This document shows, piece by piece, positions 46,250 to 57,214 of a stretch of DNA of 64,000 nt (the first letter of the stretch is position 1; each line of letters starts with the position of its first letter). Below the pieces are notes generated by a model that made no database searches, was not told the origin of the DNA, and saw nothing but the letters and a program-made list of their open reading frames with translations. A program made the translations under genes and the position numbers. The stretch comes from Platerodrilus igneus. Taxonomy: Eukaryota; Arthropoda; Insecta; Coleoptera; Lycidae. The DNA lies in contig JARFIW010000942.1 of NCBI GenBank assembly GCA_036346225.1, positions 2,377,001 to 2,441,000 of the forward strand. Reading direction: 5' to 3'.

Positions 46250-47475
46250 AGAATTTTCCCGGAGAGCTTGTTCAAGAAACTTTGCTTGAATTTTTATCTT
46301 TGAAGGCAGGATCTACTTCTGAAAACAATTTTTATGCGTCAATGCCAGCGAAGTCTACAATGTCGAAAAACACTACGAGAGGCCATCTTCTCGTGCCGCG
46401 TTTTGCAGAATATATCCGAGCCATTTGATGGAGAGTATCTATCTTACATGTGATTTTCCAATGCTCCACCTGAAGGTACTACATTCGGCAGGAAGCGAGT
46501 TTTTTACCTACAAAATTTGGAATTTTGCCGAACCCTTGCTGTTCCAAGCAAGGTAGAGATCTTTAACGTGCGGGACAACACTCACACGCGGGACCTCCAT
46601 TTTATCTTTCATCCGAACGAGGGTGTTCTTTTGTGAAAAATGCTCGCCTAACATTTTCAAGCGGACCGTGTCGGGATTCGAACCCGGGATCTTGGGCGTA
46701 ATAGTCACACACATACCGCTACGCCACGGAGCCGCCCCCGGAGAGTATCTACCCCTGGCTTTGTCGAATTGTAGAACAATATAGCCTCAGGTTTCTTGTG
46801 ATCCTCGGTGAATATGTCAAATGTATTGTGCTGAGTGGTGAGCAAAACTACAGCTTTGTTTTTCTTGGGGGACGTAATCAGCGTTCTCTCAGCATAGGCA
46901 AAAACGGTTGACGGCAGCATTTCTTTTGGCAGTTTCTTGCGGTTCTTCCTCACCAACCAATGTCATGTTCTTTTGTAGCAGTTCTTGCGCAAGGGAGAAG
47001 TTCGTAAAAAATTGTCTGTCGTGATATTCTTTCCTATACCTGCTAGGCGGTCCACTAAATCCAACACTACACGCTGGCCTTGATTTTCTTCTCGCTGGTC
47101 GCCAATTTTTCCGGGATAAATTTGTAGGATTTCCAAGTACTGCTTTTCAAAATCTAGATCAGCCCAGAATTTAATTCCGTACTTACCCGGCTTATAAGGG
47201 ATGTACACCTTGAACCCATATCATCCACGGAAAGTACACAGATATTCATCCGCAATAGTATTTGAGGAAGTAATATAAGATGATCCGCATCGGTTCGCAA
47301 ACTTATCGAGCAACTCCAAAATAGCTTCTGCCTTGTTGCCTGAAGTGTCCTTCCTTGCTTGTTTTGTTTCTAGGTTATCGAATCGTAGACTTCGTAATAT
47401 GTCTTCAAACCTGCTTTGATTCATTGTTGCTCTGAAGATCAAGAAACCGTACTCCTCTGACCAGAGTTCACAAAG
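46250..47475 (-). pseudogene. piggyBac transposase, copy 1 (partial)
   Basis: A piggyBac transposase is a DDD enzyme cutting at TTAA. Pieces in order: 47442-47221 with IADEYLCTFRG (first Asp); 47208-46963 with YIPYKPGKYGIKFWAD and TTDNFLRTSPL (second Asp); 46956-46752 with FYNSTKPGVDTLR (third Asp); then a SINE; then 46429-46250 with SAKRGTRRWPLVVFF (the conserved Trp). All three Asp are present. A stop follows FAGIDA, also found in copy 2. The N-terminal part is missing: homology stops near 47475. Several frame changes occur. Confidence 0.85.
46442..46739 (-). mobile_element. tRNA-derived SINE, copy 2, inside piggyBac copy 1
   Basis: 298 bp. Same family as 9309-9605, with A box GGCGTAGCGG and B box GGGTTCGAATCCC on the minus strand. 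The exact 12-bp target-site duplication GGAGAGTATCTA (46430-46441 and 46740-46751) proves insertion. It splits the transposase between the third Asp and the following Trp. Confidence 0.93.
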
Positions 47476-52284: not shown

Positions 52285-52862
52285 AAGAGTATCTACCCCT
52301 GGCTTCGTCGAATTGTAGTACAATATGACCTCAGGTTTTTTGTAATCCTCGGCGAATATGTCAAATGTATTGTGCTGGGTGGTGAGCAAAACTACAGCTT
52401 TGTTTTTCTTGGGAGACGTAGCACCCAATCAGCGTTCTCTCAGCATAGGCGAAAAGGTTGACGGCAGCATTTCTTTTGGCAGTTTCTTGCGGTTCTTCCT
52501 CACCAACCAATGTCATGTTCTTTTGTAGCAGTTCTTGCGCAAGGGAAAAGCTCGTAAAAAATTGTCTGTCGCGATATTCCTTCCTATACCTTGTAGCAAT
52601 TTTATTTTCCATATATATGCATCATCCTTTTATTAAATATTAAATAATATAATACATTATAATGTTATCCAATCACTTAATTTAATAACATCTATTGTCC
52701 AATAAAGAACTAGTATTTAGTTCATGTTAAAATTTAAATTCTACGGTGACAATATATAGCTCTTGTTTGGTATCCTCTAAAGCCCCTCTACTCAGGAAAC
52801 CGCAAGGTAACGCTGTTACCAGGCAGCAACAAGCTCGGCCCGCACTTCTAACACAGCTGGGG

Positions 52863-53063
52863 TTAAAGCAGGTCGAAATTGTTCTTAGGAACGATGTCCT
52901 TCATTGATTTTGTTGTTGGAAGCGTGCACGATGGAAGATTGCAAGTGTAAGCCATCTTCAAAAATTGTTTTGGATGGTCCATTTTTTTGTTGAAACCAGT
53001 CGTGGAGAACGATGAAGTTTTTGTTAAAGTACCGTTAGGAACAGTAAGTGAATTTGTTTCCAT
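52863..53063 (-). CDS. Small ORF in left palindrome arm, unrecognised
   Basis: A 66-codon frame starting METNSLTVPNGTLTK, reading outward from the palindrome centre. It matches the right-arm ORF at 55540-55785 except for a short middle segment, where homopolymer length changes (one A, then two A) shift and restore the frame, and an earlier end where one T is missing near 52877. I do not recognise a family. Promoter or splice signals directly before it were not seen. Confidence 0.4.
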   Translation of the reverse strand: METNSLTVPNGTLTKTSSFSTTGFNKKMDHPKQFLKMAYTCNLPSCTLPTTKSMKDIVPKNNFDLL

Positions 53064-54052
53064 AACAATATTAATTAAAATTTTCAGTGTAACTTTGGGA
53101 ATAATTTATTTTAAAATATATTGCAACGTAAATTATAAATAAGCAACCTTTCTGAATGGTATTCATGCGAAAATTAAATGAAAACAATTCTATTCTTGTA
53201 TAATATGGAATCACATTTATAATTTATTCAAGTTAATTACAAACAACATTTGCTTTCTTGTGGTGTGAATTACGCCTGGAACATCTGTAAATTGAAACGC
53301 AGATAATGGAAGCCAAGTGACGTGTTTTCAGTATGCAGCGCACTGTTTGTTTGGAATGGAATTTTCCGTTGTTAATACATACGTCAGCTTTCAAGCAAGT
53401 ATTTAGGTGCAATTTGGAGTTCTGGTATGTACAAAAATTATGTTCGTATGTTGTTTGAACTGTCGACGTAGTAACGAGATAAATTTTACTTTAACCGACT
53501 TGTGTTAACTTTGAACAGGTCAGGACAGACCTCAATTATATTTTACGTAGTCATACGATATGAATCTGTAATTTGTTCCTACAAATTCTTTTATTAACTC
53601 AATGAAACATCAGAAGATGTCACTACTAATTAGATAAAGTAAATTCTTCTAACTTTGAACCTTTAGAAATTAAATTTCTACATTTGATATTTTATGAACA
53701 ATTATCTGTAATTATTTACTGTGAAATTAAGGTAAATTTACCATAATTAACTCTTTCTATAAATAAGCAATTTTATGCTTTGTCAATTTGTTATATAAAC
53801 TTCATTAAATAGTAATTGGTACGGATATATTCAGTACCATTGTAATTAACTCTTCTAATTTAAATTAACTTATAAAGGAAGACATATTTTTGTAAAAAAA
53901 TTACTTTATTGGATACCAAAAGAATAGATTCTTATTTTCGGACTAAAGACTATCTTTTATTTAAGAGGAATGAAAGTCGATTCTGATTGTATTTAATTAT
54001 TTTTGAGTTTGAATGCACAAACAGTGTTTTTCTTTGTTTAATCTGTTCACAG

Positions 54053-54092
54053 GTGCAGTGCAGGATTGCTAAGGTCAAGGTCGAGCCATAAG
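54053..54092 (+). other. Possible 40-nt exon, left palindrome arm
   Basis: A pyrimidine-rich stretch and acceptor (CTGTTCACAG) precede 40 bases that end in AAG before the donor GTAAGA at 54093. The exact mirror copy lies at 54508-54547 on the minus strand. The two read toward the palindrome centre, opposite to the small ORFs. Confidence 0.35.
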
Positions 54093-54173
54093 GTAAGAAA
54101 CTTCAAAGATTAGGTAGTCAATCGAAGCCTATACTTTATGTGCCTATACAATTGGTACAGCAATCGAGGCCTA

Positions 54174-54196
54174 CACGTTGGGCGCCATTTGTTACC
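54174..54196 (-). other. LTR end and tRNA-Lys primer-binding-site-like junction
   Basis: On the minus strand GGTAACA (54196-54190), two bases, then TGGCGCCCAACGTG (54187-54174). The last 14 bases complement the 3' end (with CCA) of animal tRNA-Lys, and LTRs commonly end in CA two bases before such a site. It lies in the palindrome's spacer. Confidence 0.5.
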
Positions 54197-54507
54197 TTTT
54201 TACTTCCAATTTAGTTTAACGAGAAATTCCGATACTTAAAAAGGAGCCCACGGCAAATTAAGATGGAAGGTGGCTCTATGTTGAGGAAATCTCGAAGGTA
54301 TAGCGGCTAGTCGAACTTATATGCTCTGGGTAGAGAATGAGCTGTGGGTCGGGGTGTAATTGCACTAATAATAAAAATAAGGCGCCACCGTATTTTTTTA
54401 TACTGAGAAGACCTAATACAAGTCCCTTGTACAAGGCTAATGCGGAAACCTTTCTCCTATAACCGCTATATAATTTCAAAGACCACCTAATCTTTGAAGT
54501 TTCTTAC

Positions 54508-54547
54508 CTTATGGCTCGACCTTGACCTTAGCAATCCTGCACTGCAC
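54508..54547 (-). other. Possible 40-nt exon, right palindrome arm
   Basis: Mirror copy of 54053-54092 with the same acceptor and donor on the minus strand. Confidence 0.35.
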
Positions 54548-55539
54548 CTGTGAACAGATTAAACAAAGAAAAACACTGTTTGTGCATTCAAACTCAAAAA
54601 TAATTAAATACAATCAGAATCGACTTTCATTCCTCTTAAATAAAAGATAGTCTTTAGTCCGAAAATAAGAATCTATTCTTTTTGGTATCCAATAAAGTAA
54701 TTTTTTTACAAAAATATGTCTTCCTTTATAAGTTAATTTAAATTAGAAGAGTTAATTACAATGGTACTGAATATATCCGTACCAATTACTATTTAATGAA
54801 GTTTATATAACAAATTGACAAAGCATAAAATTGCTTATTTATAGAAAGAGTTAATTATGGTAAATTTACCTTAATTTCACAGTAAATAATTACAGATAAT
54901 TGTTCATAAAATATCAAATGTAGAAATTTAATTTCTAAAGGTTCAAAGTTAGAAGAATTTACTTTATCTAATTAGTAGTGACATCTTCTGATGTTTCATT
55001 GAGTTAATAAAAGAATTTGTAGGAACAAATTACAGATTCATATCGTATGACTACGTAAAATATAATTGAGGTCTGTCCTTGGCCTGTTCAAAGTTAACAC
55101 AAGTCGGTTAAAGTAAAATTTATCTCGTTACTACGTCGACAGTTCAAACAACATACGAACATAATTTTTGTACATACCAGAACTCCAAATTGCACCTAAA
55201 TACTTGCTTGAAAGCTGACGTATGTATTAACAACGGAAAATTCCATTCAAACAAACAGCTGCGCTGCATACTGAAAAACACGTCACTTGGCTTCCATTAT
55301 CTGCGTTTCAATTTACAGATGTTCCAGGCGTAATTCACACCACAAGAAAGCAAATGTTGTTTGTAATTAACTTGAATAAATTATAAATGTGATTCCATAT
55401 TATACAAGAATAGAATTGTTTTCATTTAATTTTCGCATGAATACCATTCAGAAAGGTTGCTTATTTATAATTTACGTTGCAATATATTTTAAAATAAATT
55501 ATTCCCAAAGTTACACTGAAAATTTTAATTAATATTGTT

Positions 55540-55785
55540 ATGGAAACAAATTCACTTACTGTTCCTAACGGTACTTTAACAAAACTTCATCGTTCTCCAC
55601 GACTGGTTTCAACAAAAATGGACCATCCAAAACAATTTTTGAAGATGGCTTACACTTGCAATCTTCCATCGTGCACGCTTCCAACAACAAAATCAATGAA
55701 GGACATCGTTCCTAAGAACAATTTTCGACCTGCTTTAACCCCAGCTGTGTTAGAAGTGCGGGCCGAGCTTGTCGCTGCCTGGTAA
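55540..55785 (+). CDS. Small ORF in right palindrome arm, unrecognised
   Basis: An 81-codon frame starting METNSLTVPNGTLTK and including KQFLKMAYTCNLPSC, KSMKDIVPKNNF and VLEVRAELVAAW. It is the longer of the two arm copies. Both copies keep most of the peptide despite indels, but the arms are nearly identical overall, so this is not proof of selection. No known family or transmembrane segment. It could be a captured host exon or a fragment of an element protein. Confidence 0.45.
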   Translation: METNSLTVPNGTLTKLHRSPRLVSTKMDHPKQFLKMAYTCNLPSCTLPTTKSMKDIVPKNNFRPALTPAVLEVRAELVAAW

Positions 55786-57214
55786 CAGCGTTACCTTGCG
55801 GTTCCTGAGTAGAGGGGCTTTAGGAGGATACCAAACAAGAGCTTATATATTGTCACCGTAGAATTTAACTTTTAACATGAACTAAATACTAGTTCTTTAT
55901 TGGACAATAGATGTTATTAAATTAAGTAGATTGGATAACATTATAATGTATTATATTATTTAATATTTAATAAAAGGATTGATTATACGGCTATATATTA
56001 GGTGGAAAATAAAATTGCACTAGGTGGTCCACTAAATCTAGCATGACACGCTGGTCGCCAATTTTCCCGGGATAAATCTGCAGGCTTACCAAGTACTGAT
56101 TTTCACAATCTACAGCAGCCCAGAATTTAATTTCGTACTTTCCCGGCTTGACAGGGATGTACACCTTGAACTCACATCGTCCACGGAAAGTACACAGATG
56201 CCCATCCATAGTAATATTTTAGGAAGGAATATAAGATGATCGGCATTGGTTCGCAAACTTATCGAGCAACTCCAAAATAGCTTCTGCTTTGTTGCCTGAA
56301 GTGTCGTTCCCTGCTTCGACTCATTGTTGCTCTGAAGATCGAGAAACCGTACTCCTCTGACCAGAATTCACGAAGGATCTTTCCTCGACCCATTTGAACT
56401 CCATTCATCAACAAGAATACAAGGAATGCAAGAAGTTCTGTTCTGTCGATGTTAGTGTAGCGGCTAAAATATTCGTGGTCCTTTTTCAGATCAGATGCAC
56501 GTTTGTTGGTGTGTTCGAAGATCAGGTCTAAAATTTCATTGGCAAAGAACGTCCGTAAGGATTCCACTTTAGATTCAATGTTCATATTTTCTGGAAGGCC
56601 GGGTTTAAATCTTATTATATTTCTCAAAGGTTGTCTTCGAATAACAGATGGCTATGGGCTCTAATTTATTGCACCATTCTTGCTGATGTATCCGGCACTG
56701 TGGCTGTTGTATTCTTCTCCATCCGAATCTCCGGAATCATTCTCGTTCTCACTATTAAAGAGTACATTATCGTCCTCAGCATCACTTTGGTCAAATTCAT
56801 CCGTCACCTCCTGCGAATTTAGTATGTCTAGCACATCATCGATGTGCAATACATTCTGGCGACTTGTGCTTGCCAGTTTCTACACTGACTTTACATCCGA
56901 ATACCAATAATATGGTAACAGCATCTATTTTGACGCTTTAGAAAATATACAACGCACCACACGACGATGCAATTGTTACTGAAATGATGAAATACATTTG
57001 TACGCTAGATGACGCAATTGCTATTGAGTTATAACACTGCGCACGATGACGAAATTGTTTCCGAGATGATGCAATACACTGTACCAGTTGATGCAATGTT
57101 ACGAGTTATTAAACTACACAAAGACGTAATTGTTGCCGAGATGATGCAATTAAAACAAAAACGTGTAACCTGTCGGGGTCATTTTGTACCCCACGCGAGT
57201 TAAGGTTTGTAGCT

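What the first reader, a model, noticed from the sequence alone, without database searches (positions are those of the whole stretch)
52595..56020. 3.4-kb near-perfect palindrome inserted in a piggyBac transposase
Arms of about 1.52 kb match almost base for base, yet other copies in the region are heavily decayed, so the palindrome is young or maintained by gene conversion. It interrupts a coding line that resumes on its other side, and the uninterrupted version exists at 47.03 kb. It carries no transposase I can see. Assembly artefacts often produce palindromes, but here the arms differ by several indels and the insertion site is clean.
Basis: partly seen in the sequence, partly recalled or inferred. 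Interest (0 to 1): 0.8.

Follow-up and report, generated by a model that had tools for sequence, protein, structure and literature searches.

The report
Snap-back LTR palindrome in piggyBac remnant
The palindrome is two copies of a retrotransposon's end repeat joined back to back, most likely a misfired reverse-transcription product that was inserted whole; similar palindromes hinged on a copied tRNA primer occur elsewhere in the same genome.

Summary
The palindrome is real: arms at 52592-54119 and 54481-56018 around a 361-nt spacer, differing by 4 substitutions and 17 indel events. It is not a foldback transposon. Each arm is the ~1.84-kb LTR of an abundant Ty3/Gypsy element (1,590 LTR-start sites at up to 2 mismatches). 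Left arm: LTR nt 1 to about 1524. Right, on the minus strand: a whole LTR (outermost 4 nt missing) plus 74 nt of leader with the primer-binding site (PBS). Both outer ends are LTR starts, and the flanks rejoin to within one base of the empty site at 47.04 kb. The inner junction was in none of the 39 other places scored. Best reading: a plus strand that had copied the tRNA-Lys primer switched template and copied back to an LTR start, and the product was inserted whole. Its PBS is of the tRNA-copied type, as in only 2 of 28 distinct ordinary copies read; this favours, but does not prove, snap-back over end-joined cDNAs. Of 66 tRNA-Lys 3'-end sites read (111 in the genome), 7 are long palindromes hinged on copied tRNA, one also holding U6 snRNA. 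No target-site duplication is present, so the insertion step is unresolved. New variant of a known kind.

The parts
52300..52591 (-). piggyBac-type transposase remnant, part beyond the insertion
   Evidence: aligns with the uninterrupted copy at 46.76-47.04 kb
52588..52591 (.). ACCT next to the exact LTR start; fits the purine..pyrimidine form of the family's 4-bp target duplications but is not repeated at the other end
52592..54119 (+). left arm: LTR nt 1 to about 1524 (52592-54115) plus 4 nt shared with the leader at the junction
54116..54119 (.). inner junction, AGGT|AGTC; GTC fits both sides
   Evidence: read from the sequence
54116..54189 (-). 74 nt of retrotransposon leader following the right-hand LTR
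54174..54187 (-). primer-binding site TGGCGCCCAACGTG, exact complement of the CCA-tailed tRNA-Lys 3' end; 26 of 28 distinct ordinary copies read have the other type (TAGCGCCCAG..), 2 have the tRNA type
54120..54480 (.). unpaired spacer: most of the leader plus the inner part of the right-hand LTR
54190..56018 (-). LTR in reverse, whole but for its first 4 nt (TGTA) at the outer edge; its outer part 54481-56018 is the right arm
56019..56330 (-). piggyBac-type transposase remnant resumes
47030..47050 (.). empty-site counterpart (CCTATACCTGCTAGGCGG) in a second piggyBac remnant

Best explanation
During reverse transcription of a Ty3/Gypsy element, a plus strand that began at the LTR start and had copied the LTR and part of the tRNA-Lys primer ran on about 60 nt into the leader. 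It then switched onto plus-strand LTR DNA at about nt 1524 through 3 nt of pairing (4 with a G-T pair) and copied back to that strand's 5' end. The product is a hairpin-like cDNA with an LTR start at both ends. Made double-stranded, it went into a piggyBac remnant as one piece, with the right end 4 nt short. Shown: anatomy, LTR identity, empty site, junction seen only here, tRNA-type PBS, arm kinship, tRNA-hinged palindromes elsewhere. Inferred: the order of strand switches, and whether integrase or end joining made the insertion.
For: Arms are LTRs of a family with gag, protease and integrase. The left arm begins at LTR nt 1 and both outer ends are LTR starts, which run-off copying of a plus strand gives. 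The empty site is continuous. The arms are sisters at 100/99 support, like LTR pairs of one element. The inner junction was in 1 of 40 scored places, the window itself. The PBS is the tRNA-Lys copy, against 2 of 28 distinct ordinary copies; 2 of the leader's 3 differences from the common form in 74 nt are in the PBS and both lead to the tRNA sequence. A snapped-back plus strand should keep the tRNA copy, as no RNA-templated minus strand faces it. In the same genome, 63 of 66 tRNA-Lys 3'-end sites read carry the CCA tail and 7 of 66 are long palindromes hinged on the copy, 93-98% over the 110-359 columns nearest the hinge; pairing flanks of different loci gave 4 of 200, three of them long. One hinge overlaps a U6 snRNA match, a mark of template switching.
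Against: No target duplication, while 10 of 10 ordinary copies with both ends readable have one, so ordinary integration is not shown. The tRNA-type PBS also occurs in 2 of 28 ordinary copies, one of them with a longer tRNA match than the palindrome's, so it does not by itself mark a snap-back. The palindrome keeps 14 nt of tRNA-like sequence and its switch point lies in the leader, not in tRNA. The genome-wide count of PBS types did not complete. The tRNA-hinged palindromes have LTRs with other end sequences, so they are analogues; of the seven loci aligned over wider stretches only L045 and L112 show like LTR starts at both outer ends.
Confidence: 0.6

Rival explanations
1. Two double-stranded cDNA pieces of one element, each with an intact LTR start and a broken inner end, were joined broken end to broken end by microhomology end joining, then inserted as one piece.
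For: Explains two LTR-start outer ends, the 3-4 nt junction homology, and sister arms if both copied the same RNA. Ordinary copies can carry the tRNA-type PBS (2 of 28), so the PBS does not exclude it.
Against: Has to add a PBS type found in only 2 of 28 ordinary copies. LTRs joined tail to tail through copied tRNA recur in the genome, which strand switching explains more simply.
Confidence: 0.27
2. Post-integration rearrangement: two ordinary insertions in opposite orientation, or one partly inverted provirus, with the middle deleted.
For: Ordinary and tandem copies are abundant. A second inverted LTR pair at C131 (L013) lies beside internal element sequence.
Against: Flanks rejoin to within one base of the empty site and the arms are each other's closest relatives among 21 rows; two independent insertions would be expected to give neither.
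Confidence: 0.07
3. Assembly or sequencing artefact (fold-back chimeric read).
For: Indels far outnumber substitutions between the arms (17 to 4), unlike six ordinary LTR pairs pooled (26 to 54). Inverted duplications lower nanopore base-calling accuracy (abstract of PMC7229812).
Against: A fold-back read would mirror the flanks too; here the two flanks are different halves of one transposase remnant. The indel excess may be base-calling error inside a real palindrome; the sequencing method is unknown to me.
Confidence: 0.04
4. A mobile palindromic (foldback) transposon family with its own ends.
For: Long inverted arms with matching termini.
Against: Termini are LTR starts; the listed copies of the arm are largely same-orientation pairs about 5.5 or 7.9 kb apart or single; the junction was in 1 of 40 scored places, the window.
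Confidence: 0.02

Closest known systems
Ty3/Gypsy LTR retrotransposons (nearest named integrase relative: a Molorchus minor protein, 57%)
   Same: arms are its LTRs; leader and PBS present; family has gag, aspartyl protease and integrase
   Different: two LTRs tail to tail, no internal region beyond 74 nt of leader, no target duplication
Gypsy-25 of the migratory locust, described as having an inverted pair of LTRs (PMC8786324, passages read)
   Same: a Gypsy element of an insect said to be flanked by inverted LTRs
   Different: described there as the classic structure of a subfamily; here ordinary copies have direct LTRs and the inverted form is a single event. I did not see its sequence
Autointegration products and inverted 2-LTR circles of Ty1 and retroviruses (PMC4751563, passages read)
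   Same: self-rearranged cDNA with LTRs in inverted order
   Different: those are circles, and autointegration joins an LTR end to an internal site (recalled); here neither side of the inner junction is an LTR end, and the product is chromosomal with two LTR starts outward
DIRS-1 with inverted LTRs (PMC5633606, passages read)
   Same: inverted terminal repeats on a reverse-transcribed element
   Different: DIRS-1 carries a tyrosine recombinase; this family's ordinary copies have direct LTRs, an rve integrase and 4-bp duplications
Reverse-transcribed primer tRNA and tRNA/U6 chimeras (recalled, no paper read)
   Same: copied tRNA-Lys with CCA, and a U6 piece, beside LTR-like ends
   Different: here some sit at the hinge of LTR palindromes

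Membership tests
Ty3/Gypsy LTR retrotransposon insertion | arm is a TG..CA LTR that occurs as direct pairs around an internal region | tested here: met
   9 stretches fetched, 8 of them with same-orientation pairs
Ty3/Gypsy LTR retrotransposon insertion | gag and integrase of the Gypsy kind in the family | tested here: met
   Retrotrans_gag, Asp_protease_2, rve in L021; rve in L009. Reverse transcriptase was not found as an ORF or tested
Ty3/Gypsy LTR retrotransposon insertion | direct LTRs in the copy itself | tested here: not met
   LTRs are inverted
Ty3/Gypsy LTR retrotransposon insertion | 4-bp target-site duplication in the copy itself | tested here: not met
   ACCT on the left, not repeated on the right; ordinary copies 10 of 10 readable
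Autointegration product | LTR terminus joined to an internal site | tested here: not met
   junction joins leader nt 74 to LTR nt about 1524
Foldback/MITE DNA transposon | the whole palindrome recurs at other sites | tested here: not met
   junction in 1 of 40 scored places (of 2,100 candidates), the window itself
Snap-back reverse-transcription product | both outer ends are LTR starts | tested here: met
   TGTAGC exact on the left; right lacks the first 4 nt
Snap-back reverse-transcription product | trace of the copied tRNA primer that sets it apart from ordinary copies | tested here: inconclusive
   14-nt tRNA match present; 26 of 28 distinct ordinary copies lack it, 2 of 28 have it
Snap-back reverse-transcription product | single-stranded snap-back intermediate observed | not testable with these tools
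   needs cDNA from particles

The most novel reading that the evidence does not exclude
LTR retrotransposons of several families in this genome recurrently turn plus-strand strong-stop DNA, with the copied primer tRNA as hinge, into double-ended LTR hairpins that become inserted: a distinct class of non-autonomous insertion (LTR, tRNA, inverted LTR). Because promoters in the two LTRs would point inward through a 1.5-kb stem, such copies could also make hairpin RNA that silences the parent family.
Probability: 0.35. Interest if true: 0.75.

Novelty: new variant of a known kind. Interest (0 to 1): 0.55.

Why it matters
It gives a concrete, dateable origin for a long near-perfect palindrome: failed strand transfer during LTR retrotransposition. 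If the tRNA-hinged class is general, it is a fossil record of reverse-transcription intermediates and a natural source of hairpin RNA against active families. Nothing of this kind appeared in the listings of ten full-text searches of the held library, apart from the locust Gypsy-25 described with inverted LTRs. Those searches were made before the tRNA hinges were seen and none targeted them, so absence from print is not claimed for the hinges.

Tried and rejected
Foldback or MITE-like transposon: rejected by the genome pattern of the arm and the junction seen only here. Autointegration: no LTR terminus at the junction. Gene conversion of arms: not needed. An early arm distance of K 0.0173 was inflated by a misaligned block; the pairwise count of 4 substitutions replaces it. 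The C131 inverted pair (L013) was pursued for a far LTR with a target duplication; no LTR match beyond the pair was found in about 15 kb, so that test gave nothing. Rfam on 52300-56400: 0 matches. Viral contigs: 0 relatives. ARAGORN on the window: 0 genes. That tRNA-hinged palindromes are LTRs inserted beside real tRNA genes was rejected: 63 of 66 sites have an encoded CCA (which eukaryotic tRNA genes lack, recalled), 55 of 66 copies are shorter than 70 nt, and one hinge includes U6.

One of the 27 was a second reading of the same place (L040 lies in L016), and the two leaders that my search anchor had missed (L030, L038) both have the tRNA-type PBS. The count is now 26 of 28 without and 2 of 28 with it. 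I lowered the best explanation from 0.70 to 0.60 and raised the end-joining rival from 0.17 to 0.27.

Frequency attempt: the 100 listed of 1,590 LTR starts gave 28 same-orientation neighbours 4.5-9.5 kb apart, one inverted pair under 4.5 kb (C131) and one opposite-orientation pair 11.3 kb apart. The 100 listed of 547 A-flanked starts, read by eye, hold no inverted pair under 4.5 kb. The T-flanked list has 26 sites. The G-flanked list did not complete and a C-flanked one was not asked for. The counts of the two PBS types did not complete (tRNA type; common type).
Full report
Observation. Pairwise they differ by 4 substitutions and 17 indel events. Of these 21 differences, 8 have only the right arm's form among 17 other LTRs and 2 only the left arm's; the rest are undecided. 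The host is a decayed piggyBac-type transposase. With the insert left out its two sides align with the second copy near 47.04 kb, one base different at the site.

What the arms are. In the window's own genome (2.71 Gb, 1,723 contigs) the left arm gave 41 matches at 94-100% (40 of 2,459 candidates scored), many as same-orientation pairs about 5.5 kb apart. Nine stretches were fetched; 8 hold pairs of a TG..CA repeat of about 1.84-1.85 kb around an internal region, the ninth is the inverted C131 pair. Ten ordinary copies had both ends readable (7 with two LTRs, 3 with one), and 10 of 10 have an exact 4-bp target duplication of the form purine..pyrimidine; L006, L014 and L021 could not be judged. 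The internal region holds integrase; a longer copy holds gag, aspartyl protease and integrase. Of 29 protein relatives the named ones are four beetle proteins (44-57%) and two fish proteins (35%). The LTR-start pattern has 785+805 sites; among the 100 listed, 28 neighbours are same-orientation, 14 at 4.5-6.5 kb and 14 at 6.5-9.5 kb, with one inverted pair and one distant opposite pair. So the arms are LTRs.

Anatomy. On the minus strand the insert reads: LTR (first 4 nt missing at the outer edge) to 54190, two bases, PBS, leader to 54116; then the strand turns and reads LTR nt about 1524 back to nt 1. GTC fits both sides of the joint. Both outer ends are LTR starts. The left one is exact and follows ACCT, which fits the family's target form; the right lacks 4 nt and there is no second ACCT. 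The base outside the LTR start is T at 547 sites and A at 26 (G not answered, C not asked); the window has T. Either integrase acted at one end and end joining at the other, or both ends were end-joined, or 8 nt were lost later.

One event, one source. The 201-nt junction query was matched in full only by the window; the other 39 scored places all begin at the joint (40 of 2,100 candidates scored, best first). In a tree of 21 LTRs the two arms are sisters (100/99) on a stem of 0.015; the eight ordinary pairs have stems of 0.0037-0.015 and C131 0.019. The arms' own end branches there (0.013, 0.0073) exceed what 4 substitutions give, probably because the same block is misaligned as. By substitutions (4 in about 1,520, against 2-20 in about 1,840 in six ordinary pairs) the arms are as young as ordinary pairs. 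The indel excess (17:4 against 26:54 pooled in those six) is unexplained; base-calling error in inverted duplications is one candidate (PMC7229812, abstract only).

The primer footprint. Just inside the LTR the palindrome has TGGCGCCCAACGTG. The tRNA-Lys 3' end in this genome is ..CCCCACGTTGGGCG: 111 sites, all 100 listed with T at the telling position; ARAGORN calls tRNA-Lys(CTT) in 2 of 6 loci; all six loci printed have CCA next. Its complement is TGGCGCCCAACGTGGGGC, so the palindrome's first 14 nt match a copy of the primer, after which it has the element's own leader. Ordinary leaders: 29 readings of 28 distinct places (9 from whole loci, 20 fetched from the best matches). Twenty-six have TAGCGCCCAGCGTG (one of these AGTGTG), and two have the tRNA type: L030, which matches all 18 nt of the tRNA copy, and L038, which matches 13. 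So the primer copy is inherited now and then by ordinary copies, and is rare. Two of the palindrome leader's three differences from the common form are the two PBS changes. A snapped-back plus strand has no RNA-templated partner at the PBS and would keep the copy always; an ordinary double-stranded cDNA keeps it seldom. This leans toward snap-back over joining of two finished cDNAs, by roughly the 1-in-14 frequency, not more.

The class. Of 111 tRNA-Lys 3'-end sites, 66 were read: 63 with CCA, copies of 22-73 nt (up to 3 mismatches allowed), 11 of at least 70 nt. Two pairs of the 66 are near-duplicates of each other (L050/L051, L075/L076), none of them palindromic. Seven of 66 are long palindromes around the tRNA copy: L045, L060, L067, L073, L080, L086, L101; three more have matches of 15-20 nt. 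The control, left flank of one locus with right flank of another, gave 4 of 200 (220-354 columns at 75-90% in three, 41 columns in one), by my reading from families shared between loci. The sequences beside the hinge differ among the seven, so several families are involved. Wider stretches (local alignments, outer limits approximate): L045 has a complete tRNA at the hinge and both outer ends begin TGTTAC, with adjoining 4-mers TCCT and TCTG. L112 (place of L101) has arms of 1750 columns, both outer ends TTGTAACGGGC; taking TG as the start, the adjoining 4-mers are GCAT and ACAT, three of four alike. L111 (L060) has arms 97.6% over 1536 columns and a hinge with tRNA and a U6 match (82.9 bits, 2048-2159); its outer ends are not LTR starts of the TG kind. 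L110 (L073) turns at the tRNA T-arm, whose stem is self-complementary. L108 and L109 have unclear outer ends; L113 has 113 columns. A second inverted pair in the window's own family (C131, L013) joins LTR nt about 924 to nt about 1828 and is followed by internal sequence; its far end was not found.

Judgement. The object is an aberrant LTR-retrotransposon cDNA inserted whole, most likely made by snap-back on the primer side, with end joining of two cDNA pieces as the main rival. The mechanism is inferred from fossils; the hairpin-silencing idea is untested here.

Noticed in passing
L045 (C12), L060/L111 (C361), L067/L113 (C671), L073/L110 (C771), L080/L108 (C872), L086/L109 (C931), L101/L112 (C1051): Long LTR palindromes hinged on copied tRNA-Lys with CCA; one hinge also holds a U6 snRNA match, one turns at the T-arm.
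   Followed up: partly
L030 (C1143:1671325-1671505) and L038 (C721:8194035-8194215): Two ordinary leaders of the window's family with a tRNA-type PBS, 18 and 13 nt of tRNA match: occasional inheritance of the primer copy.
   Followed up: partly
L013 (C131:2147874-2150632): Second inverted LTR pair of the window's own family, imperfect junction homology of about 12 nt, followed by internal sequence on one side.
   Followed up: partly
L042-L107, non-palindromic sites: Many sites where LTR-like sequence is followed by 22-73 nt of copied tRNA-Lys and then other sequence; 9 of 66 copies have exactly 53 nt plus CCA.
   Followed up: no
C20:1723808-1739560; L014; C945:1660837-1666474; C1275:11517960-11523706: Evenly spaced LTR starts or leaders, or a 5' LTR preceded by the polypurine end: looks like tandem arrays sharing LTRs.
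   Followed up: no
L009-L017 against L021: Two size classes of the family: LTR starts about 5.5 kb apart (internally deleted; integrase remnant in L009 and L012) and about 7.9 kb apart (gag, protease, integrase in L021).
   Followed up: partly
window 52592-56018: Between the arms small indels outnumber substitutions 17 to 4, opposite to six ordinary LTR pairs pooled (26 to 54).
   Followed up: partly
window about 46430-46750: The other piggyBac remnant holds an insert with a tRNA B-box-like stretch (GGATTCGAACCC) between two copies of GGAGAGTATCTA; ARAGORN finds no tRNA.
   Followed up: no
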